From NCBI GenBank assembly GCA_903970295.1, contig CAJCHQ010001016.1, forward strand, positions 1-9,535: DNA of 9,535 bases, read 5' to 3'. Shown piece after piece: positions 347 through 8,693 of this stretch; position 1 is the first letter of the stretch; each line of letters opens with the position of its first letter. Source of the stretch: Bryobacterales bacterium. Its GTDB lineage: Bacteria > Cyanobacteriota > Vampirovibrionia > Obscuribacterales > Obscuribacteraceae. The notes under the pieces were generated by a model, which did not search any database, had not been told where the DNA came from, and saw nothing but the letters and a program-made list of their open reading frames with translations. The translations under genes were made by a program, and so were the position numbers.

Positions 347-2707
347 ATGACAAAGCAAAGGGCGCATAATTCGGTAGCGAGCGCGTCGCAAGCACCGACA
401 GCGCCCGTTCACCGCACACTCAAGCACGCCTTCTCAACGCAAACGGTGTTGAAACACAAAGCCGTGTCTCATACCGCGCACACGGTTATGGCGCCTAGCC
501 ACAACTTGATCCTGGTAAGTGCATTTACCGGCGCGACCTTGCTGATAGTGATCGCCAGTCTGGTTTTCTGGCGGCTCAACCATAGCCAGTTGCTAGAATC
601 CACATACACGAACCTGAAACGCCGCTGGTTGAAAGAATTGATGAGCACTGCCAGTCTTGAGCAAAAGCTGCGCAGTACAAATCACTCAATCGATTCAGCA
701 TCCTCGCAATTTGCAGGCGCCACGGCGACTTTTTACTCGCAGGCTGCAGCCACCTGGTCTGGGTGGCTGCAGCATAGAGAAGAATGTGAGGCGGCGCTGG
801 CTTCTGCACAAACACTCTTCCACAAACACCTGCATCGCGAGTGGTGGCAAACGTCGCTCAAACACCTCGAATCGGCAATTGCAATCTTGACGACCGGCAC
901 AGCCAGACTGCTTGAAACACAAGGGCCCGAAGCAGCCAGCGCCGAAGCGGACTTAAAACGTTTCAATCTGGCCTGCCAGATCGCCAATGGCGTTAGCTGT
1001 GAGATCGAAAACAAGCTCTCGGGCACCGAGAATGAAAGTCTAGACACAGCGATGAAGAAATTGCACAAAGCGCAATTGCCAATCGCTCCCTATCTCGAGA
1101 GAATCGAGCAAATTCGGTCGCAAGCTAAGATCATCTCACAACAAGTACTGAGCGACCCACTAACTGAGCATGACAACGTTTGTCGCGCGTGGCACCAGAC
1201 AGTTGATGCACTTGTGCGAGAACTTCTTCGTGCCCTGACGATGAAAGTCCAACTCGAGTCTGCCCAGACGCAGTTCCAAGCGGTGCAAACGCGCCTGGCA
1301 GATCTGCGCAATACAGCAGTTGATGTCGGGTTCCCTGGCGCAGAGTCCATCGGCAACTTTACGTTGAGCGAAGCACCATGCCAGCCCGATCCAATTGCTG
1401 CCACTGTCAGCGACCTCCTAGCACACTTGCATCAACTCCTGTGTGCCGGTCGATTGGCAGCCTTCGACTCAGAGTTTACCCCAGTTCCCGACATCATTGG
1501 CTCGCTGACGCCGATGATCGACCAGGCACTGGCGGACAAAGCTCAGGTCGACGAAGTGATGACTGCAATCATCTCTCAATCGACTGCCGCCGATTTACAA
1601 GCCGATCAAAGCGATCGCCAGCAAATCCTCGATCTCTACATCCGGCAGGAATGGGCGAAAGCACACGCCGCCGCAGAAATTCTCAGGCTGTCACACGAAC
1701 AACGGCAGCACGCTCGCAAACAAGTCGAACAATTGGCTCAACAACTAGCCCTCATCGACAGCGAAATCAAAACGCAACCCACCTGTTGGCGCGTTTCGGC
1801 GGCTGTCGATGAGACCCTGGCGATGGTCACGCAACAGTCAATTTCACTCAGCCATGCAGCCAGCCGAGGAAGCGGCGATTGGCCTGCACTTGCCAGTGCG
1901 GCCACTGACCTGTCGGCACAAATCCAGGGCGAACATACCACGTCGCTCAGGCAACGTCTGCAAGCCGAGCTCTCGGCATACGACCAGGCGCTGAACAAAG
2001 TGTCGGAGTTGAGCGAACTCAAGTCTGATCTAATCGCCAAAATCAAGGACGGTTGGGGCGGAAAGCCAGCGAGCGAGCATCTCGACGAGGACAAATGCCA
2101 CTGGATAAGTACGATCATCGAGCAGCTCGCCGTGCCCAAGCAAAATTGGCTAAAACTGGCAGAAACAAGCGCGCAAGCAATCTTGAGCCTGGCACCAGCA
2201 GCGATACTAATCGGAGAGGAGATCGCACTCAGTCGAGAAACGCAGGAACAGCTAAGGTCGTGCCAATCGATCAGCGCTCGGTGTAAAAAAAGTCCTTACA
2301 CACGCACCATCGCCGGCGTGCAGTACGGCGATAAATTGATCTGCCCCACCCATGAAGCCGATGCACACCTTGCCAGGGCAGTGAACTTCTGGGAGGCGCG
2401 CCTATATGAAAGCGCTTTGGCAGCGATCAAAGAAGCCCGGCTCGCACTTGCTCGAGTGCACTTGCAATGTTGGTGGCTCTGCTTTCAAATGCTCAGCACT
2501 AGCAGCGACTCGTGCGTTCGAGACTTTCTCTGGAGTCAGGGTTATGAGCCGGGCATGTTCGAGCAATGGAGCGGGGAGCTTCTGCAAAAGGCCCAAAACG
2601 GAGCTATCTACGAAGCCCCACAGATCTTTTGCAACCACTCTTTGCAAAAGGCCAAACCTTTGCCCATCGAGCTACCGCCTGTGAGCGATTACAACCTCGC
2701 GCTCTGA
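347..2707 (+). CDS. Membrane-anchored helical (coiled-coil-like) protein, unknown function
   Basis: This 786-residue protein starts at an ATG preceded by an AAGGA site at 333-337. Residues 1-53 are basic and lack Asp and Glu. Residues 54-75 form one strongly hydrophobic transmembrane segment. The remaining ~700 residues are almost entirely helix-forming, rich in Gln, Glu, Ala, Leu and Lys, with recurrent Trp residues, and resemble coiled-coil or spectrin-like bundles. The layout resembles EzrA-type proteins, but this is analogy of architecture, not homology. Near the C-terminus, C639, C646, C666 and H669 form a C-x6-C-x19-C-x2-H arrangement that could bind zinc; a helical-hairpin segment resembling a TPR unit follows (about 675-705). 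The protein ends in Asn-Leu-Ala-Leu, a possible PDZ ligand. Topology is uncertain: the basic N-terminus suggests it is cytoplasmic, which would put the bulk outside. Only 20 nt separate it from the E2 gene, so it is probably a scaffold, sensor or target for the conjugation system. That role is inference. Confidence 0.85.
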   Translation: MTKQRAHNSVASASQAPTAPVHRTLKHAFSTQTVLKHKAVSHTAHTVMAPSHNLILVSAFTGATLLIVIASLVFWRLNHSQLLESTYTNLKRRWLKELMSTASLEQKLRSTNHSIDSASSQFAGATATFYSQAAATWSGWLQHREECEAALASAQTLFHKHLHREWWQTSLKHLESAIAILTTGTARLLETQGPEAASAEADLKRFNLACQIANGVSCEIENKLSGTENESLDTAMKKLHKAQLPIAPYLERIEQIRSQAKIISQQVLSDPLTEHDNVCRAWHQTVDALVRELLRALTMKVQLESAQTQFQAVQTRLADLRNTAVDVGFPGAESIGNFTLSEAPCQPDPIAATVSDLLAHLHQLLCAGRLAAFDSEFTPVPDIIGSLTPMIDQALADKAQVDEVMTAIISQSTAADLQADQSDRQQILDLYIRQEWAKAHAAAEILRLSHEQRQHARKQVEQLAQQLALIDSEIKTQPTCWRVSAAVDETLAMVTQQSISLSHAASRGSGDWPALASAATDLSAQIQGEHTTSLRQRLQAELSAYDQALNKVSELSELKSDLIAKIKDGWGGKPASEHLDEDKCHWISTIIEQLAVPKQNWLKLAETSAQAILSLAPAAILIGEEIALSRETQEQLRSCQSISARCKKSPYTRTIAGVQYGDKLICPTHEADAHLARAVNFWEARLYESALAAIKEARLALARVHLQCWWLCFQMLSTSSDSCVRDFLWSQGYEPGMFEQWSGELLQKAQNGAIYEAPQIFCNHSLQKAKPLPIELPPVSDYNLAL

Positions 2708-2714
2708 GCACCAA

Positions 2715-2720
2715 AGGAGG
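2715..2720 (+). promoter_or_regulatory. Strong ribosome binding site setting the E2 gene start
   Basis: AGGAGG lies within the longer AAAGGAGGTGG and is 7 nt before the ATG at 2728. This is the best SD in the window. It fixes the start at 2728, rather than an in-frame ATG at 2566 that would run 142 nt inside the preceding gene and add 54 residues with no domain character. Its strength suggests efficient reinitiation after the upstream stop at 2705-2707. Confidence 0.85.
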
Positions 2721-2727
2721 TGGTCGA

Positions 2728-4692
2728 ATGAGTTGCCTTTTTTTGCCTAAGATGGACCCCGAGCGAATCGCCCTGCTACGAGCCGCAAACATGACTTGCA
2801 TGGATTTCTCACTTGGCGATCTGGAAGGCGTGCTGATCGAAGAAGCCCAGCTACCAGAGGTGATGAATTTGGTCAATGTTCGAGCTCTAACACAATCAGA
2901 CTCGGGTTATGAAGGGATCAAAACCCTCGACGTCGAGTACGGAAAGTTGCTGCCAAAACTGACCGACGACCACGTGGCGACCGTGATTCCAGACTTGCCC
3001 GGCATATGGCCAGGTGTCTCACGCCCGGCTCAAGGGTTGGTGGCCTTGCTGCAGCGTGATGTGGTGCTCCATTATCCACGCAGAACAGCTTCACCCATCG
3101 ACGACGGGCGCTTTCATGTGCACATTTATAGCTCGCCTGCTGGTCACACACATGCGCCACCGCCGGAGCGCATTTGGGGCGTGCCTGTTGAATGTCTCGA
3201 TCTCGCCTGGCGCGGATCAAGTCACGGCATCAGTTTGAGAGATGAGACGACGGGTTATGAGGTCGCCGAATTGATCGGTCAGAACAACCTTTATGTCCAT
3301 CACGATTTGCTCAAGCATCGTGGCACCATTTACGAAGAAGAGATTTTGCGCAAGCTTCTCGAGCGCGTAATCGTGCATCTCGAAATACCGGCCGCCAGAC
3401 TGCGCCTCTACAAACGCAATCTCTTCATCGACGAGAGTTCGGCGGCAACAGCTCGCGTGATGAATAGTGTTGCGGCGACAAACGATCATGCCGAGAAAGT
3501 TAAAGCGCTCAGAAGCGAAATCGCCAAGCGCACTCGCGAAGCCCTGCAGATCGAGCAAAACCTTCTGCGCAATGATTCATTCAGCCCAGAAGTGTTTGCC
3601 GGCGAATACGAAAGTCTTGTGGCCCTGCCGCAAGTGACCGAAGTGCAGGTGGCAAGCGAACACATAATCGTCTATACAGTTGTGCTCAACTGCCGTGACG
3701 ACAGAACAAACAGACAGCACGAAATCGGTGCTTTCAGAATCATGTTGCCGATCAATGGAAGCGCGCCCCTCTGGTTCAATATGACGCGTCTGGTGAGTGG
3801 ATGGAAAGCAGCTCAGCAGGCTCCTCATGTCTGGAACGATGGTAGTGCCTGCCTGGGAAACACCGAGGACCTCTTCAAAGCGCTCTTAGGACAGCGTCAA
3901 TACGCTCTGGCTGCACAGTTGGCGATCGAGTTTGTGGAATCAGCGAACACCGCAGACGCAGCTGGCAAATTGGTCACCAATTGGCCGTTGGTTAACTCGG
4001 TGCAAGATCAAAGCACCGCGGTCAGCCCAACTGCCACAACCAGTGAGGCATACTCTCAAAACCGGCAACGTTACATCGATGCTTGCGCCTCTCGCGTCGA
4101 CGACCTGGTGCAGCAGGCACGTGAACGCGTGACTGCTTACCGCTCAAGCCTGGAGAGACTGCAGAGTGAATTGGTTTATCACTCTCGAGCTGCCTCTTTT
4201 AGGCATCGTCAAACAACCAATAAATTGGCGGTTGATCGTGATGAGTTGGCTCGCCAGTTCGATCAACTGTTAGCTGTAGCGAAAGTAGAGGATGTCGACA
4301 TCCGAGAAGGCAAACTTCTAATCCGCACTGAAACTCTAGTGGCGCGCGATCAGGGCAGTGGCAAGTGCCACCAGATAGGAACCTTTCTGATCCAAATTGA
4401 CCTAAGCGGTCAAGGCGACTGCGTGCACTGGACTAATCTCAACTCCGTCATCAACGCCTGCAGGGCTCAGCAGCAGGCACCCAACGTCTGGGCCAGCGGC
4501 AGAGCCTGTTTGACAGACAATCACTCGGTGTTCGTCGAGCTGATTGCCAAAATGCAGATAGCGACCGTCGCCCGTCTGGCGATCCAGTTTATCGAACAGG
4601 TGGATACCCGCGCACTGCCAGGACAGTACCTCAATAGTTGGCCGGAACTCCCCGCTACGAAAGAAGGAGACGATGTCGCAAACATTCTTTAG
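2728..4692 (+). CDS. Tandem E2-like (UBC-fold) ubiquitin-conjugating protein with novel N-terminal domain
   Basis: The 654-residue product probably carries activated Ubl as a thioester from the E1 to a target. Residues 1-235 form an unrecognised domain with His residues 130, 132, 140 and 142. Two duplicated modules follow, each a coiled-coil-like helix (about 252-282 and 450-490) plus an E2-like domain (about 285-421 and 500-641). The first E2 core has APHVWNDGSACLG with Cys375; the second has APNVWASGRACL with Cys594. Both align with the canonical E2 motif HPN-x4-G-x-x-C-L, including the position 8 residues before Cys, which is His in the first and Asn in the second. The modules also share IG-x-F before the core, LAI-x-F-E after it and a terminal SWP/NWP. 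An ordinary E2 is about 150 residues with one Cys, so a tandem E2 is unusual. The C-terminus ends in Asn-Ile-Leu. The 3' end overlaps the JAMM gene by 20 nt. E2 assignment is strong; conjugating activity is inferred. Confidence 0.85.
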   Translation: MSCLFLPKMDPERIALLRAANMTCMDFSLGDLEGVLIEEAQLPEVMNLVNVRALTQSDSGYEGIKTLDVEYGKLLPKLTDDHVATVIPDLPGIWPGVSRPAQGLVALLQRDVVLHYPRRTASPIDDGRFHVHIYSSPAGHTHAPPPERIWGVPVECLDLAWRGSSHGISLRDETTGYEVAELIGQNNLYVHHDLLKHRGTIYEEEILRKLLERVIVHLEIPAARLRLYKRNLFIDESSAATARVMNSVAATNDHAEKVKALRSEIAKRTREALQIEQNLLRNDSFSPEVFAGEYESLVALPQVTEVQVASEHIIVYTVVLNCRDDRTNRQHEIGAFRIMLPINGSAPLWFNMTRLVSGWKAAQQAPHVWNDGSACLGNTEDLFKALLGQRQYALAAQLAIEFVESANTADAAGKLVTNWPLVNSVQDQSTAVSPTATTSEAYSQNRQRYIDACASRVDDLVQQARERVTAYRSSLERLQSELVYHSRAASFRHRQTTNKLAVDRDELARQFDQLLAVAKVEDVDIREGKLLIRTETLVARDQGSGKCHQIGTFLIQIDLSGQGDCVHWTNLNSVINACRAQQQAPNVWASGRACLTDNHSVFVELIAKMQIATVARLAIQFIEQVDTRALPGQYLNSWPELPATKEGDDVANIL

Positions 4693-5908
4693 TCCACACC
4701 TTTTCCGCAAGGACGTCAGATTTCTTCCCGGACACGAGCCCAGAAAACCGAAAGTGATCCTCTCTCGACAGGCTTACTCGATGATCTGGCTGTATGTACA
4801 CCTTGCCCGTCAGGAAGTCGGTTGGCTAGGCACCGCCAGCGAAACCGCGGATGGCGATTTTCGCATCGAAAAGGTGATGCTTATCGACCAAGAAGTGACC
4901 GGCGTCGAAACTCAACTGTCGATCGATGGTCTAACCGAGTTTGGCATGGAGCTGATCGACAAGGGTGACGCCGGCATCGAAGAGTGGAACAAACTACGTT
5001 TTTGGGGCCACTCTCATGTCCATATGGGCACCAGTCCTTCACACACAGATGAGAGTACGATGCTGACTTTTCAGCATCCAACTTTCGGTCATCCCTGGTT
5101 CATTCGCGGCATCTTCAACAAAAGGGGTCGGGCCGAATTTACCCTGTTCATGTACGACCAGGGTTTGAAATTCGAAGACGTCGAATGGCAGGTCGAAGGG
5201 CTTTCAGAAAAAGAGCAGACGGAGCAGATTGCTTTAGAAGACACCACAGACAAAAGCGAAAGCGCAGCCGAAGCCGCACTCGATTCAGCCGCCGAAAAAC
5301 AAGAAGTTCGTTCGAAACACCCCCTATCACCCGATCTGACCCACGAAATAATCGCCGCCGCCAAAACCGAGTTTGCGCAGAAGGTACGCGAGCGTCAATA
5401 TTTCTATCGGCCTTTCGGTCAATTCGGCGCGCTGCTTGGTTCGCCCGATCAACAACGGTCACCTGGAGAAGACACGCCGACCAGCACGACGAGCGTCTTC
5501 GGTGGCATTGGGGTGTTGCTTGTGCCGGGCAAAATCGACAATCAGCAAACCGTAGTCGAAAGCGTCGCCAAAGGTGGTCCAGCAGAAAAAGCGGGAATCA
5601 AGCCAGGCGACGTCTTGCTGATCATCGACGGTCGCGAGCTGAGAATCTTTCCTGGCGCGCCAGATAAGCTGAAAGGAGAAGTCGGTACAACCGTGTCAGT
5701 GACAGTCGATCGCCGCGGTGAGATTTTCGAATTCACCGTCACGCGCGAAGAGATAGGCAATGTCACTCCGGTAGTCGGTGATGACGCGGTCAATGATTGT
5801 GCGCCCAAGCAGCCCTCAGCCAAAGCCCGTCCCACACTCTGGGATCGAATATTCTTCAACGAGAGCAGTCAACGGACAGACAACAGATCAGACAACAGAA
5901 AGGAATAA
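4673..5908 (+). CDS. JAMM/MPN metallopeptidase fused to a PDZ domain (deubiquitinase-like)
   Basis: This 411-residue protein has a JAB/MPN domain at about residues 25-175. Glu48 lies in QEVGWLG, and residues 113-126 give a perfect H-x-H-x7-S-x2-D motif (His113, His115, Ser123, Asp126), so all zinc ligands and catalytic residues are present. The family hydrolyses isopeptide or peptide bonds after Ubl C-termini, so the likely role is Ubl maturation or deconjugation. An acidic, Ala/Glu/Lys-rich linker (about 178-275) leads to a PDZ domain at 276-360, with a GGIGVLL carboxylate-binding loop and AEKAGIKPGDVLLIIDG, resembling PDZ domains of Ctp and HtrA proteases. No serine protease domain is present. 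The polar tail after 365 looks disordered. The start ATG at 4673 has AAGGAG at 4664-4669, a short 3-nt spacer, and lies inside the end of the E2 gene, suggesting coupled translation. JAMM and PDZ assignments are strong; substrates are inferred. Confidence 0.92.
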   Translation: MSQTFFSPHLFRKDVRFLPGHEPRKPKVILSRQAYSMIWLYVHLARQEVGWLGTASETADGDFRIEKVMLIDQEVTGVETQLSIDGLTEFGMELIDKGDAGIEEWNKLRFWGHSHVHMGTSPSHTDESTMLTFQHPTFGHPWFIRGIFNKRGRAEFTLFMYDQGLKFEDVEWQVEGLSEKEQTEQIALEDTTDKSESAAEAALDSAAEKQEVRSKHPLSPDLTHEIIAAAKTEFAQKVRERQYFYRPFGQFGALLGSPDQQRSPGEDTPTSTTSVFGGIGVLLVPGKIDNQQTVVESVAKGGPAEKAGIKPGDVLLIIDGRELRIFPGAPDKLKGEVGTTVSVTVDRRGEIFEFTVTREEIGNVTPVVGDDAVNDCAPKQPSAKARPTLWDRIFFNESSQRTDNRSDNRKE

Positions 5909-5914
5909 CCAAAC

Positions 5915-6607
5915 ATGGTCGATCCACTTCGTCACATCGAAGTATTCTCGCCAGACGCTTTTGGTGAACGTCGTATCGACGTCATCGGAGCAGGCGCCAC
6001 AGGTTCCAAGGTCGTACTCAGTCTAGCAAAACTAGGCATCCAAAACATCCATGTGTGGGATTTCGACATCGTCGAAGCACACAACATCGCCAATCAAGTC
6101 TATGGCAATGACGACGTTGGCCAACTTAAAGTCGAAGCTCTTAAGCAGCTGGTGCTCCGTCAAACCGGCACGCAGATTACAACTCACGCCGAGCGCGTCG
6201 ACGGAAGCCAAGAACTAGGTTGCGTGGTCTTTTTGCTCACAGACACGATGGCTTCGCGCAAAGAGATCTTCGAGCAAGGATTGCTCTTTCAACTGCGCAC
6301 CAAATTGGTGATCGAAACGCGCATGGGTGCTGACTCCGGTCGCATCTATGCATTCAATCCATCTCAGCTACCGGAGGTCAACGAAGAAAGCGGCTGGCAG
6401 AGCACACTCTACAGCGATGATGTGGCAGCGGCTTCGGCGTGTGGCGCTTCAATCTCTGTTGGACCGACCGCCGGCATTGTCGCCGAATTGGCCGTCTGGC
6501 AACTGATTCGCTGGTTCGCTATCGAACAAGGTGCAGCCGACCAATTGGACCACGAAGTGATCTTCAGCCTGCGTCCACTGCTTTTCCTGAACAATCGCTT
6601 CGAGTAG
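5915..6607 (+). CDS. Minimal E1-like (ThiF/MoeB-type) Ubl-activating enzyme
   Basis: This 230-residue protein has a Rossmann-type adenylation fold. GAGATG at 25-30 is the nucleotide-binding loop, Asp49 and Asp51 follow strand 2, Asn57 and Gln61 match the N-x3-Q part of the E1 motif, Lys72 matches the conserved Lys, and LLTDT around Asp110 fits the conserved Asp near the ATP site. Position 60, usually Arg in NLNRQ, is Asn here. Cys176 in ACGASISVGP aligns by eye with the ThiF Cys184 region and is the candidate thioester residue. The CxxC zinc pairs of MoeB and ThiF are absent. It would adenylate the C-terminal Gly of the Ubl protein downstream and pass it to the E2. At 230 residues it is shorter than MoeB/ThiF-type enzymes and far shorter than eukaryotic E1s, and has no visible Ubl-fold domain for E2 recruitment. 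It starts 6 nt after the JAMM gene, with AAAGGA around 5899-5904. Confidence 0.92.
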   Translation: MVDPLRHIEVFSPDAFGERRIDVIGAGATGSKVVLSLAKLGIQNIHVWDFDIVEAHNIANQVYGNDDVGQLKVEALKQLVLRQTGTQITTHAERVDGSQELGCVVFLLTDTMASRKEIFEQGLLFQLRTKLVIETRMGADSGRIYAFNPSQLPEVNEESGWQSTLYSDDVAAASACGASISVGPTAGIVAELAVWQLIRWFAIEQGAADQLDHEVIFSLRPLLFLNNRFE

Positions 6608-6688
6608 CACGGCTAATACTCACGCCGCACGGACACCGCATCTGTCAAAGTTTCCACATTCTCCTCACCGAATAAAGAAAGGCTCGCC

Positions 6689-7195
6689 ATGGAATCCAAA
6701 GTAGACATCTCCTCGCTACCCAAACTCACAATTAACACCGACCCGCTGCCGGAAACTTCCAAACGACGCATTAGCTCCGTGCGCGTTGCATTGATGCCCG
6801 GTCAAATCAGAACGATCCAAATCGAAACACCCACGACCGTCGCCTGTGTGCTCAACGATGCCGGTCTGGAAGTTCCTCCCGGTTATCAAATCCGCGTTAG
6901 CAAGCAGATCGCCAATCTGTCGAGCGTGGTCGCCGACGGGCAAGATGTTCTCCTGATCAGACCGGTCAAGGGCAACGGCGGACTAATCGCCATTCGTGTC
7001 GCGTTGATGCCGGGACTGATAAAAACGGTCCAGGTTGAAGCACCGGCCACCGTCAGCAGCGCGCTGCAAGCTGCCGGTCTGCAAGTACCTCCCGGTTATC
7101 AAATCCGGGTTAGCAAGCAGATCGCCAATCTATCCACTCCCGTTTTAGAAGGGCAAGACGTGCTTTTGATTCGGCCAGTCAAAGGTAACGGGTAA
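6689..7195 (+). CDS. Tandem ubiquitin-like protein, two ThiS/MoaD-like beta-grasp domains
   Basis: This 168-residue protein has a flexible 30-residue N-terminal extension and two homologous domains, about 31-97 and 102-168, with a period of 71 residues. Each runs from RVALMPG through a Thr/Ala-rich helix, the block PPGYQIRVSKQIANLS, then DGQDVLLIRPVKGNG or EGQDVLLIRPVKGNG. The strand-helix-strand order, the GQDV-hydrophobic strand and the Gly-rich end match ThiS/MoaD-type beta-grasp proteins, whose GDxV segment precedes a terminal Gly-Gly. The second domain ends in Gly-Asn-Gly at the stop, a terminal Gly ready for adenylation without processing. The first ends Gly-Asn-Gly-Gly before the next domain. 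Two fused Ubl domains recall ISG15 and the BilA proteins. The start at 6689 has AAAGAAAGG at 6674-6682. It lies 81 nt after the E1 gene, the largest gap in the cassette, and shows no clear promoter there. It is the presumed modifier of the system. Confidence 0.85.
   Translation: MESKVDISSLPKLTINTDPLPETSKRRISSVRVALMPGQIRTIQIETPTTVACVLNDAGLEVPPGYQIRVSKQIANLSSVVADGQDVLLIRPVKGNGGLIAIRVALMPGLIKTVQVEAPATVSSALQAAGLQVPPGYQIRVSKQIANLSTPVLEGQDVLLIRPVKGNG
6779..7192 (+). repeat. Tandem 213-nt coding repeat (two Ubl domains)
   Basis: The two copies (6779-6979 and 6992-7192) are offset by 213 nt. DNA similarity is uneven. The segments 6875-6921 and 7088-7134 differ at only two of 47 positions (6895 versus 7108, 6919 versus 7132), while the first half of each copy is more diverged. 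This indicates domain duplication, with a recent conversion event or strong constraint in the second half. Confidence 0.9.
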
Positions 7196-7222: not shown

Positions 7223-7259
7223 TGGAACAGTCAGCGGTAGGGTCCGACTGACTGTTCCA
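7223..7259 (+). terminator. Hairpin after the Ubl gene, possible terminator
   Basis: TGGAACAGTCAG (7223-7234) and CTGACTGTTCCA (7248-7259) are perfect 12-bp complementary arms around a 13-nt loop. Within the loop CGG at 7235-7237 and CCG at 7244-7246 could extend the stem past one bulged base. No T-run follows, so it is not a classical intrinsic terminator. It could stabilise the 3' end of the conjugation transcript, attenuate, or be a protein site. It lies 28 nt after the Ubl stop and 51 nt before the next gene. Confidence 0.6.
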
Positions 7260-7310: not shown

Positions 7311-7985
7311 ATGAAAGAACATAGGCAGGGCCCCATTGCCAGATTAACGGTAGTCTCGGTTGAAACAGATCTGGCGGAACCGGTGGTCACAGAAACGCAG
7401 GTGCTGAATGGCCGGCAAACAAGCATCGTTCTTGCGACTTTGCACGAGACCTACCCGGCTAAAACTTTACTTCCGGTAGCAACAGCAAGTTTGCTCGCCG
7501 GCTTCTTGCTGCACGGACTGCCGCTTATCGGTAGCTTTTTCGGGGCTGTGTTATGGCAAGTGCTTTTTTTAGCAGTCGTACGCGGCCTACCGAACTATTG
7601 GGTGGCGCGGGTGTTCGGCTACAAAAAGCACAGTGTTATCGCCCGCTTCGCTCTTGCCGCAGCTGAAATCGTAATCATGGCCGGCCTAGCGCTTTTGTTC
7701 GGCACAGTGATTGCTTCGTTCATGGGTCTAAGCACGTGGTCTGGTGTTATTCATTTCAGCGGTCTCACGCTCGGCACGCCTCTGAAATTGGCGGCGATCG
7801 CCTTCGCCTTCCAAGCGATATACAACTATCTAGCCTTGCCTCTATCGGCAAAACTGACACATGCATTATTGCCGACACTCAGCGTCCTGATCGCGCGCGT
7901 ACCAATACTAGGTGCTCTGGCAGAAAAACTGCAGTCGCGCTTTGCCGTTCAAAAAAGGGACAGAAAGAATCGTCGATATCTTTAG
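7311..7985 (+). CDS. Multi-pass membrane protein, unknown function
   Basis: The 224-residue protein starts at an ATG with AAGGAG at 7301-7306. Residues 1-48 are polar. Hydrophobic stretches follow at about 52-69, 72-90, 110-137, 158-178 and 183-203, so four or five transmembrane helices are likely. A basic loop (Arg100 to His107) sits between the second and third, and the tail is strongly basic (Arg/Lys from 210 on), which suggests a cytoplasmic C-terminus. I do not recognise the family and see no catalytic motif. It follows the conjugation cassette after a hairpin, so it may be a membrane effector or partner of the system or belong to a separate transcript. Neither is shown by the sequence. 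The next start lies 67 nt after its stop. Confidence 0.8.
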   Translation: MKEHRQGPIARLTVVSVETDLAEPVVTETQVLNGRQTSIVLATLHETYPAKTLLPVATASLLAGFLLHGLPLIGSFFGAVLWQVLFLAVVRGLPNYWVARVFGYKKHSVIARFALAAAEIVIMAGLALLFGTVIASFMGLSTWSGVIHFSGLTLGTPLKLAAIAFAFQAIYNYLALPLSAKLTHALLPTLSVLIARVPILGALAEKLQSRFAVQKRDRKNRRYL

Positions 7986-8035
7986 CCTCATCTCTTCGAA
8001 AAGGAACGCAACTCAACGCTACAAACTCATCACTC

Positions 8036-8044
8036 AGAAAGAGG
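8036..8044 (+). promoter_or_regulatory. Ribosome binding site deciding a GTG start at 8053
   Basis: AGAAAGAGG lies 8 nt before GTG at 8053. The in-frame ATG at 7912 would overlap the preceding gene by 74 nt and add 47 polar residues, and it has no SD. The site favours the shorter product. Confidence 0.5.
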
Positions 8045-8052
8045 CACCACTC

Positions 8053-8376
8053 GTGGTATCTATCGCATCACTTAACACTAAGCGACTCTTCAAAGGCGCC
8101 TTCTGGTTTACCGGGCTGTTCGTCGCCGCGATCTCTTTTATCAGCTTCCTCGTCTATCTGTCACAGCTGACAGACAACATTTACGTGCCGGGTTTTATAC
8201 TCGACGCCTCGAGCTTCATCGGAGCTTTTGCCGGACTGCTGACCTCACAGCAGTTAAAGCCGAAGGGGAACAAAACTTTTCACCGCAACGAGTTCATCGC
8301 TCTCGGCGCCTCCTCGGATTTGCCGGCGATATTGCCATCTGGCATCCAAGCATGGGTCAATCCTTACAAGCGGTGA
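8053..8376 (+). CDS. Small membrane protein, possibly the first part of a frameshifted gene
   Basis: From GTG 8053 the product is 107 residues. Two hydrophobic segments (about 16-37 and 45-64) are joined by a short polar turn, and a polar basic stretch follows. The start rests on the SD at 8036-8044. I do not recognise the family. Its last ~21 residues (after Gly-Ala-Ser near nt 8312) are Pro-rich and less protein-like. Reading the -1 frame from that point instead gives LGFAGDIAIWHPSMGQS and runs directly into the hydrophobic ORF downstream. A single missing C in the CCTCCTC stretch near 8308-8314 would explain this. So this may be the N-terminal half of one longer membrane protein, broken by mutation or sequencing error. 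If intact as it stands, it overlaps the next ORF by 25 nt. Confidence 0.55.
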   Translation: MVSIASLNTKRLFKGAFWFTGLFVAAISFISFLVYLSQLTDNIYVPGFILDASSFIGAFAGLLTSQQLKPKGNKTFHRNEFIALGASSDLPAILPSGIQAWVNPYKR

Positions 8377-8693
8377 TAACCGGTTTCATCATCTTGCTCC
8401 GGAGCCTCGGCGCATTTTATGGCGCCGGCTATCTAGGTGGGGCTGTGCTCTCTGCCGGCTCCTTCCTTAAAGATAAACGTGTTCATGACGAGCAGGAAGC
8501 CCAAACTAAAAAGGCGGCGGCAGAAAAGGCGGCGGCAGAAAAGCCGACGGACCAAAGCAAGTCGAAGACTGCAAACGCACCCAAGCAAGATCTGGGGCTT
8601 TATGTCCTGGTACCAGAAGTTTCCGGTCAAAACGTTGCCGCCGCAGATGCAAGTTTGCGCCCGCCCGAATCGAGCGTTGCCGACACATGGTGA
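8352..8693 (+). CDS. Small membrane protein with charged tail, possibly the second part of a frameshifted gene
   Basis: The 113-residue ORF starts at ATG 8352. A GTG at 8373 overlaps the previous stop as GTGA and is an equally possible coupled start. Neither has a good SD. Residues 5-40 are hydrophobic and Gly-rich, followed by a charged Lys/Glu/Ala linker with two copies of an AAAEK unit. The end contains VPEVSGQNVAAADASL, which faintly resembles the start of a PASTA domain but stops too early to be complete. I do not recognise the family. The frame is open well upstream of 8352 and reads naturally from about 8313, which together with the missing SD supports fusion with the preceding ORF. 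Confidence 0.5.
   Translation: MGQSLQAVITGFIILLRSLGAFYGAGYLGGAVLSAGSFLKDKRVHDEQEAQTKKAAAEKAAAEKPTDQSKSKTANAPKQDLGLYVLVPEVSGQNVAAADASLRPPESSVADTW
8511..8540 (+). repeat. Two tandem copies of a 15-bp coding repeat
   Basis: AAGGCGGCGGCAGAA occurs twice back to back (8511-8525 and 8526-8540), encoding a repeated Lys-Ala-Ala-Ala-Glu unit in a charged helical linker. Such repeats expand or contract by replication slippage. Confidence 0.9.

What the first reader, a model, noticed from the sequence alone, without database searches (positions are those of the whole stretch)
2728..7195. Complete ubiquitin-like conjugation cassette in an unusual layout
Four consecutive genes encode tandem E2, JAMM-PDZ, minimal E1 and tandem Ubl. 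The family motifs are directly visible: two E2 Cys cores, a perfect JAMM motif, the E1 GxGxxG/DxD/Cys and Gly-ended beta-grasp repeats. Bil-type operons run Ubl, E2, E1, DUB, use one E2 domain and lack PDZ. Here the order is E2, JAMM, E1, Ubl, with a membrane scaffold gene 20 nt upstream. This looks like a distinct or rarely described variant of bacterial ubiquitin-like systems, possibly antiphage.
Basis: partly seen in the sequence, partly recalled or inferred. Interest (0 to 1): 0.9.

Follow-up and report, generated by a model that had tools for sequence, protein, structure and literature searches.

The report
Bacterial ubiquitin-like tagging operon, membrane branch
An uncultured relative of cyanobacteria carries a compact set of genes that look able to attach a ubiquitin-like protein to other proteins and remove it again, and in sister copies this set sits next to a protein-unfolding machine, hinting at a bacterial parallel to how our own cells mark proteins.

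Summary
The cassette is real. Window 347-7195 encodes, on one strand, a membrane protein, an E2-type protein, a JAMM protease, a small E1 enzyme and a tandem ubiquitin-like protein (Ubl). Predicted structures support a UBC fold around Cys375 and two beta-grasp domains. In the genomes searched the family appears only in uncultured Obscuribacterales (17 of 53 genomes of the order). Corrections: the second E2 domain is degenerate in most relatives (His and Cys both kept in 3 of 27, against 39 of 39 for the first), so the protein reads as an E2 with a built-in pseudo-E2; the PDZ is private to this copy (1 of 15 scanned). Sister cassettes run Ubl-E2-pseudoE2-JAMM-E1, and in 10 of 10 loci where the next gene is visible it is a ClpB-like Hsp100 unfoldase without the ClpP-docking loop. 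The window belongs to a separate branch (E1 tree 99/97), led by the membrane gene, with Ubl last. All 25 Ubl units found end in Gly-Asn, not Gly-Gly, often with extra tails, suggesting precursor trimming. Nothing found points to phage defence specifically. Verdict: new variant of a known kind with an unusual unfoldase link.

The parts
347..2707 (+). Membrane protein (786 aa): one strong N-terminal transmembrane segment (residues 55-73; a borderline second peak at 611-629), long remainder probably helical and cytoplasmic (inference), invariant DY near the C-terminus in 6 of 6 aligned
   Evidence: five full-length homologues in the order all lie directly upstream of an E2 gene
2728..4692 (+). 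E2-type protein (654 aa): N-terminal module, catalytic UBC domain, long helix, degenerate second UBC-like domain
3580..3990 (+). First UBC (E2) domain, residues 285-421, with H367 and C375 (His and Cys in 39 of 39 first-type core units)
4237..4638 (+). Second, degenerate UBC-like domain (pseudo-E2), residues 504-637; keeps C594 but has N586 in place of the His
   Evidence: same order of helices and strands
4673..5908 (+). JAMM metalloprotease; E48, H113, H115, S123, D126 invariant in the 15 aligned; motif present in 16 of 16 found
   Evidence: weak PADLOC JAB matches, best 0.0034
5501..5740 (+). PDZ domain in the C-terminal part of the JAMM protein; found only in this copy (1 of 15 scanned)
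5915..6607 (+). E1-like adenylating enzyme (230 aa): GxGAxGS loop, DxD, LLTD, invariant C176 (SACG)
6689..7195 (+). Tandem ubiquitin-like protein (168 aa), two beta-grasp units each ending RPVKGN
7223..7259 (+). Perfect 12-bp inverted repeat (13-nt loop) after the Ubl gene, possible end of the operon (no T run)

Best explanation
The five genes 347-7195 form a self-contained ubiquitin-like protein conjugation and removal system of uncultured Obscuribacterales. Most likely course: the JAMM protease trims the Ubl precursor near its Gly-Asn end; the E1 adenylates the new C-terminus with ATP and passes it to a cysteine (C176 is the candidate); the Ubl moves to C375 of the E2; the fused pseudo-E2, acting like a UEV partner (Mms2 beside Ubc13, recalled), positions a Ubl or the target; the Ubl is joined to target proteins; and JAMM can cut it off again. 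In this branch the membrane protein is proposed to hold the machinery at the membrane, and the PDZ of this copy's JAMM may add a tether. In the sister branch the same machinery is paired with a dedicated Hsp100 unfoldase, so the likely role of the family is tag-guided extraction or remodelling of proteins (quality control). SHOWN: genes, predicted fold of the first E2 domain and of the Ubls, invariant candidate catalytic residues, degeneration of the second E2 domain in most relatives, Hsp100 linkage in the sister branch. INFERRED: conjugation itself, trimming, membrane recruitment, role of the pseudo-E2, remodelling role.
Confidence: 0.68

Rival explanations
1. It is an antiphage system of the Bil kind: the Ubl is attached to phage structural proteins or to an immune protein during infection.
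For: Bil and type II CBASS use related parts; sister cassettes share the Ubl, E2, DUB, E1 order of BilABCD as described in PMC11354881 (passages); the tandem Ubl model resembles ISG15. One sister locus (L056) has a Fic gene that PADLOC calls SoFic.
Against: PADLOC matches for the six window genes scanned are generic E1-E2 and weak JAB profiles plus two chance-level hits (LmuB 0.1, Cas3d 0.047). Of 10 selected flanking or neighbouring proteins, 8 had no PADLOC match; the other two are the Hsp100 (AAA profiles) and the Fic. Three closely related genomes (L046-L048) share five flanking gene clusters, which suggests stable inheritance. No relative confirmed in viral contigs. BilB's CEHH motif and BilD's two-domain E1 are absent.
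Confidence: 0.17
2. It is a sulfur-carrier or cofactor pathway: E1 and Ubl deliver sulfur, JAMM processes the carrier, and the E2-like protein is a scaffold.
For: Ubl best matches Pfam ThiS and E1 matches ThiF; Iyer 2006 lists ThiS/MoaD-JAB-E1 sulfur operons (PMC1779556, passages).
Against: No rhodanese, cysteine synthase or other sulfur gene among the 10 neighbours scanned with Pfam, two of which are the Hsp100 (other neighbours were not annotated); E2 His/Cys in 39 of 39; Gly-Asn instead of Gly-Gly; tandem Ubls in 4 of the 16 locus proteins with a Ubl unit.
Confidence: 0.07
3. The cassette conjugates the Ubl mainly to itself or the membrane protein to build an assembly (filament or scaffold) rather than a tag.
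For: Tandem and triple Ubls; membrane protein with a long, probably helical part, one relative of which has a weak EzrA hit (2.6e-4, below cut-off); Ubl precursors with long helical tails.
Against: A JAMM lies beside the E1 in 16 of 16 loci with an E1; sister branch tied to an unfoldase.
Confidence: 0.08

Closest known systems
Bil (bacterial ISG15-like, BilABCD)
   Same: Ubl, E2, JAMM DUB and E1 in one operon; tandem Ubl; sister cassettes share the order Ubl-E2-JAMM-E1 if the Bil letters follow gene order (PMC11354881, passages)
   Different: E1 here is a 230-aa single adenylation domain; no CEHH motif in the E2; second E2-like domain present; Gly-Asn end; membrane protein or Hsp100 attached
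Iyer 2006 operon types 6a-6e (PMC1779556; section 14 read in full; table and other passages); 6e is the polyUbl, inactive-E2 type
   Same: 6e: polyUbl plus an inactive E2-like domain, E1 and JAB
   Different: E1 and JAMM are separate proteins here; an E2 with catalytic residues is present; no Hsp100 or such membrane partner is described for the five types in the text seen
Bub (bacterial ubiquitination-like; PMC13373217, passages)
   Same: Bacterial operon family with predicted ubiquitination parts
   Different: Primary papers not held, so not compared part by part
Eukaryotic Ubc13-Mms2 (E2 plus UEV) and Cdc48/p97 (both recalled)
   Same: E2 paired with an inactive one; Ubl system paired with an AAA+ unfoldase
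   Different: Fused in one chain in the window; Hsp100 rather than Cdc48; no sequence kinship shown

Membership tests
Bacterial Ubl conjugation operon (general) | Ubl + E1-like + E2-like + JAB/JAMM in one gene cluster | tested here: met
E2 (UBC) superfamily | UBC fold around the active site | tested here: met
   [not shown]
E2 (UBC) superfamily | Catalytic Cys | tested here: met
   C375; Cys in 39 of 39 first-type core units
E2 (UBC) superfamily | HPN Asn before the Cys (recalled) | tested here: not met
   His (H367) 8 residues before the Cys, 39 of 39
Bil | E1 (BilD) with inactive plus active adenylation domains and Cys domain (PMC11354881) | tested here: not met
   E1 is 230 aa with one ThiF domain
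Bil | BilB CEHH motif: Cys, then Glu at +6, His at +8 and +13 (spacing from residue numbers in PMC11354881) | tested here: not met
   after C375 the residues are LGNTEDLFKALLG; +6 D, +8 F, +13 G
Bil | Two Ubl domains in BilA | tested here: met
   window; relatives have 1 to 3 units
Iyer type 6e | JAB (or a replacement domain) fused to E1 | tested here: not met
   separate genes
Iyer type 6d | E2 without upstream His but with an absolutely conserved downstream His | tested here: not met
   upstream His in 39 of 39
Named antiphage system | Match to a specific PADLOC or NCBIfam defence model | tested here: not met
   E1: the 25 PADLOC rows shown of 31 are all E1-E2; JAMM: weak JAB; NCBIfam 6A-MBL cap2_3 at 51.5 bits against a cut-off of 320
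ClpP-partner Clp ATPase (sister cassettes' Hsp100) | [LIV]G[FL] docking loop (recalled) | tested here: not met
   absent in 10 of 10 (8 by pattern; L049 and L052 read in the alignment); present in 2 of 7 other Hsp100 loops found in these genomes

The most novel reading that the evidence does not exclude
Obscuribacterales evolved a bacterial ubiquitin-unfoldase pathway: a Ubl with a Gly-Asn end is attached by an E1 and a paired E2/pseudo-E2, reversed by JAMM, and read by its own Hsp100 segregase (a Cdc48/p97-like role) in the cytoplasmic branch, or acts at the membrane in the window's branch. A bolder sub-claim is that Asn, not Gly, is the activated end, as in MccB's adenylation of a C-terminal Asn (recalled); MccB is also the best PDB match of the E1 profile (2.4e-8, ahead of ThiF at 8.4e-7).
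Probability: 0.33. Interest if true: 0.92.

Novelty: new variant of a known kind. Interest (0 to 1): 0.74.

Why it matters
[quoted passage not shown] Here the gene neighbourhood ties such a system to an Hsp100 unfoldase in 10 of 10 sister cassettes where the next gene is visible, and those Hsp100 proteins form a clade of their own. That would make the question 'did bacteria couple ubiquitin-like tags to protein unfolding?' directly testable with six proteins in a test tube. The E2/pseudo-E2 pair and the Gly-Asn end would each inform how ubiquitin chemistry diversified.

Tried and rejected

Limits: no whole genome is held for the window, so its host is inferred from relatives. Gene maps use longest open frames, so gaps are approximate. 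Of 16 JAMM and 16 E1 found, 15 and 14 went into the alignments; motifs of all 16 were checked. L063 was put in the membrane branch by its E1-Ubl order and tree place; its contig starts near the JAMM start. L001 ends after E1. In the trees the 'Hsp100 branch' label was also given to L053, L055, L057 and L058, where no Hsp100 is visible. L059 repeats L004 and was dropped; L060 gave no E2 core; near-identical rows such as L004/P0016 and L047/L048 remain. The first/second core split was by length and position. Ubl alignment A2 includes one non-Ubl row (L054:1571-2401), which drew 6 of the 10 new hits; the other 4 hold a Ubl unit. Protein searches scored only the 7994 and 7998 candidates sharing most words. 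Searches scored at most 4 candidates per genome on samples. So restriction to the order holds only for what was searched. E2 rows were assigned by title and chain length; one (2h2y) spans both cores.

Papers: only the passages or sections named were seen; Burroughs 2011, Gong 2025, Ye 2026 and Chambers 2024 are not held. Novelty rests on searches and is not proof of absence in print.

Full report
WHAT IS THERE. The window holds five consecutive + strand genes: a membrane protein (347-2707), an E2-type protein (2728-4692), a JAMM protein (4673-5908), a ThiF/E1-type enzyme (5915-6607) and a tandem ubiquitin-like protein (6689-7195). The E2 gene is read from the ATG at 2728, which follows AAAGGAGG, 20 nt past the membrane gene. 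E2 and JAMM overlap by 20 nt, E1 follows JAMM by 6 nt and the Ubl gene follows E1 by 81 nt. A perfect 12-bp inverted repeat at 7223-7259 lies after the Ubl stop and may end the operon. Codon-position GC of the five genes is alike (about 0.6/0.4/0.6).

THE SECOND E2 DOMAIN IS MOSTLY DEGENERATE. I aligned 66 core units from 60 family proteins. Of 39 first-type units, 39 have the His and the Cys (H367, C375 in the window). Of 27 second-type units, 3 have both (L001, L004, L049), 15 keep the Cys and 4 keep the His. The window keeps C594 but has N586. In the Hsp100-branch loci and in L003 and L004 the two domains are separate genes, E2a and E2b.

FAMILY AND DISTRIBUTION. A protein search with the window E2 gave 17 relatives and with the Ubl one. 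A profile search from the Ubl alignment gave 10 more, of which 4 hold a Ubl unit and 6 are helical proteins drawn in by one non-Ubl row (sequences). The genome scan found four loci, titled Obscuribacterales (2) or Melainabacteria (2). Within the order of that genome 17 of 53 genomes match, the two Melainabacteria genomes among them; in a class sample 17 of 382, the same 17; in a phylum sample 1 of 386, the reference genome itself. The window is therefore most likely from this order, although its genome is not held.

GENE ORDER. I fetched 20 stretches and mapped the genes. The common form is Ubl-E2a-E2b-JAMM-E1. In the 10 such loci whose contig continues past E1 (L044, L045, L046, L047, L048, L049, L050, L052, L056, L062; one per genome; L062 starts in E2a, so its Ubl is not seen), the next gene encodes a two-AAA Clp/Hsp100 protein, about 29 to 201 nt away. 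They include two sets of three close relatives (L046-L048; L044, L056, L062). Five scanned have ClpB as best NCBIfam model (810-911 bits, cut-off 1232). None of the 10 has the ClpP-docking tripeptide, which 2 of 7 other Hsp100 loops from these genomes show. A tree of these 10 and 15 other Hsp100 proteins from the genomes searched puts the 10 on one side of a branch with support 100/99. One locus, L051, runs Ubl-JAMM-E1-E2a-E2b with no such Hsp100 in the 14 kb fetched. The window form, membrane gene-E2(fused)-JAMM-E1-Ubl, is matched by L054 (plus an extra gene after the Ubl) and, as far as the contigs reach, by L001, L002 and L063; no Hsp100 is seen next to them. L003 and L004 have membrane gene-E2a-E2b only; the genome of L004 carries a full Hsp100-type cassette (L056), and that of L003 what look like two contig halves of one (L057, L062). 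In trees the two branches separate: E1 4 against 11 rows, support 99/97; E2 6 against 15 rows, 100/99 (with a warning about long branches). Some rows were labelled by gene order without a visible Hsp100 or membrane gene (see Tried and rejected).

THE MEMBRANE PROTEIN. One strong transmembrane segment at residues 55-73 and a borderline peak at 611-629; no Pfam family above cut-off. The five full-length homologues found in the order lie directly upstream of an E2 gene. A partial relative in G021 is cut by its contig end; a weaker one of 838 aa in G033 (L072) is followed by an unrelated gene, not an E2. In all, 22 of 53 genomes have some match, mostly longer proteins; the one of these scanned has a weak EzrA hit of 2.6e-4, below cut-off. 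A membrane scaffold is an inference.

THE GLY-ASN END. The 25 distinct Ubl units found by pattern (21 in 16 locus proteins, 4 more in P0020 and P0022-P0024; P0021 repeats L054) carry [LM]L[LFI][RK]xxxGN, and no Ubl protein found lacks it. After GN come nothing, 1-4 residues, a linker into another Ubl, or a helical extension of about 168 aa. Variable tails after a fixed end are what ubiquitin precursors look like (recalled), so trimming is likely, and JAMM is the candidate. Whether the cut leaves Gly or Asn at the end is open.

HOW IT LIKELY WORKS. See Best explanation. Shown: parts, predicted folds, conserved residues, linkage. Inferred: trimming, activation, transfer, conjugation, membrane recruitment. 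The Hsp100 link gives the most specific lead to function, protein remodelling or quality control, but it belongs to the sister branch.

COMPARISON WITH KNOWN SYSTEMS. Iyer and colleagues (PMC1779556; section 14 read in full, other passages) describe five bacterial types, 6a-6e. In what I saw, none has separate E1 and JAMM with an E2 plus a second, degenerate E2, an Hsp100 or this membrane protein. Bil is closest in gene content, and sister cassettes share its Ubl, E2, DUB, E1 order as lettered (PMC11354881, passages), but the two-domain E1 and the CEHH motif are not met. Bub operons are described as putative immune pathways that have not been shown to protect against phage (PMC13373217, passages); the primary papers were not available. 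I therefore file this as a new variant of bacterial ubiquitin-like conjugation operons, not as Bil or Bub.

VERDICT. Observation confirmed; interpretation partly supported. Antiphage function is possible but has no specific support here.

Noticed in passing
L044, L045, L046, L047, L048, L049, L050, L052, L056, L062: Dedicated ClpB-like Hsp100 directly downstream of E1 in sister cassettes, without a ClpP-docking loop, forming a clade of its own.
   Followed up: yes
L054:1568-2401 and proteins P0025-P0029: Helical proteins whose start resembles the N-terminal module of the E2 proteins and whose tail resembles that of the long Ubl precursors; unknown role, next to the Ubl gene in L054.
   Followed up: partly
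[not shown]
   Followed up: partly
L044:4925-7672, L057:1-2130, L058:6581-9359: Second E2a-E2b pairs; in L044 and L057 upstream of a full or partial cassette, in L058 at a contig end.
   Followed up: no
L056:12549-13895: Fic-domain protein (PADLOC SoFic) directly after the Hsp100 in one locus.
   Followed up: no
L078 (G012): Hsp100 of the same general kind, 56% identical, in a genome without an E2 match; it branches outside the cassette clade.
   Followed up: partly
window 7311-8693: Small membrane proteins downstream of the inverted repeat, no family match above cut-off; probably a separate unit.
   Followed up: partly
window 2693-2704: The membrane protein of the window ends in NLAL, which could suit a PDZ ligand (recalled rule); the only PDZ-bearing JAMM found is in the same operon.
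   Followed up: no
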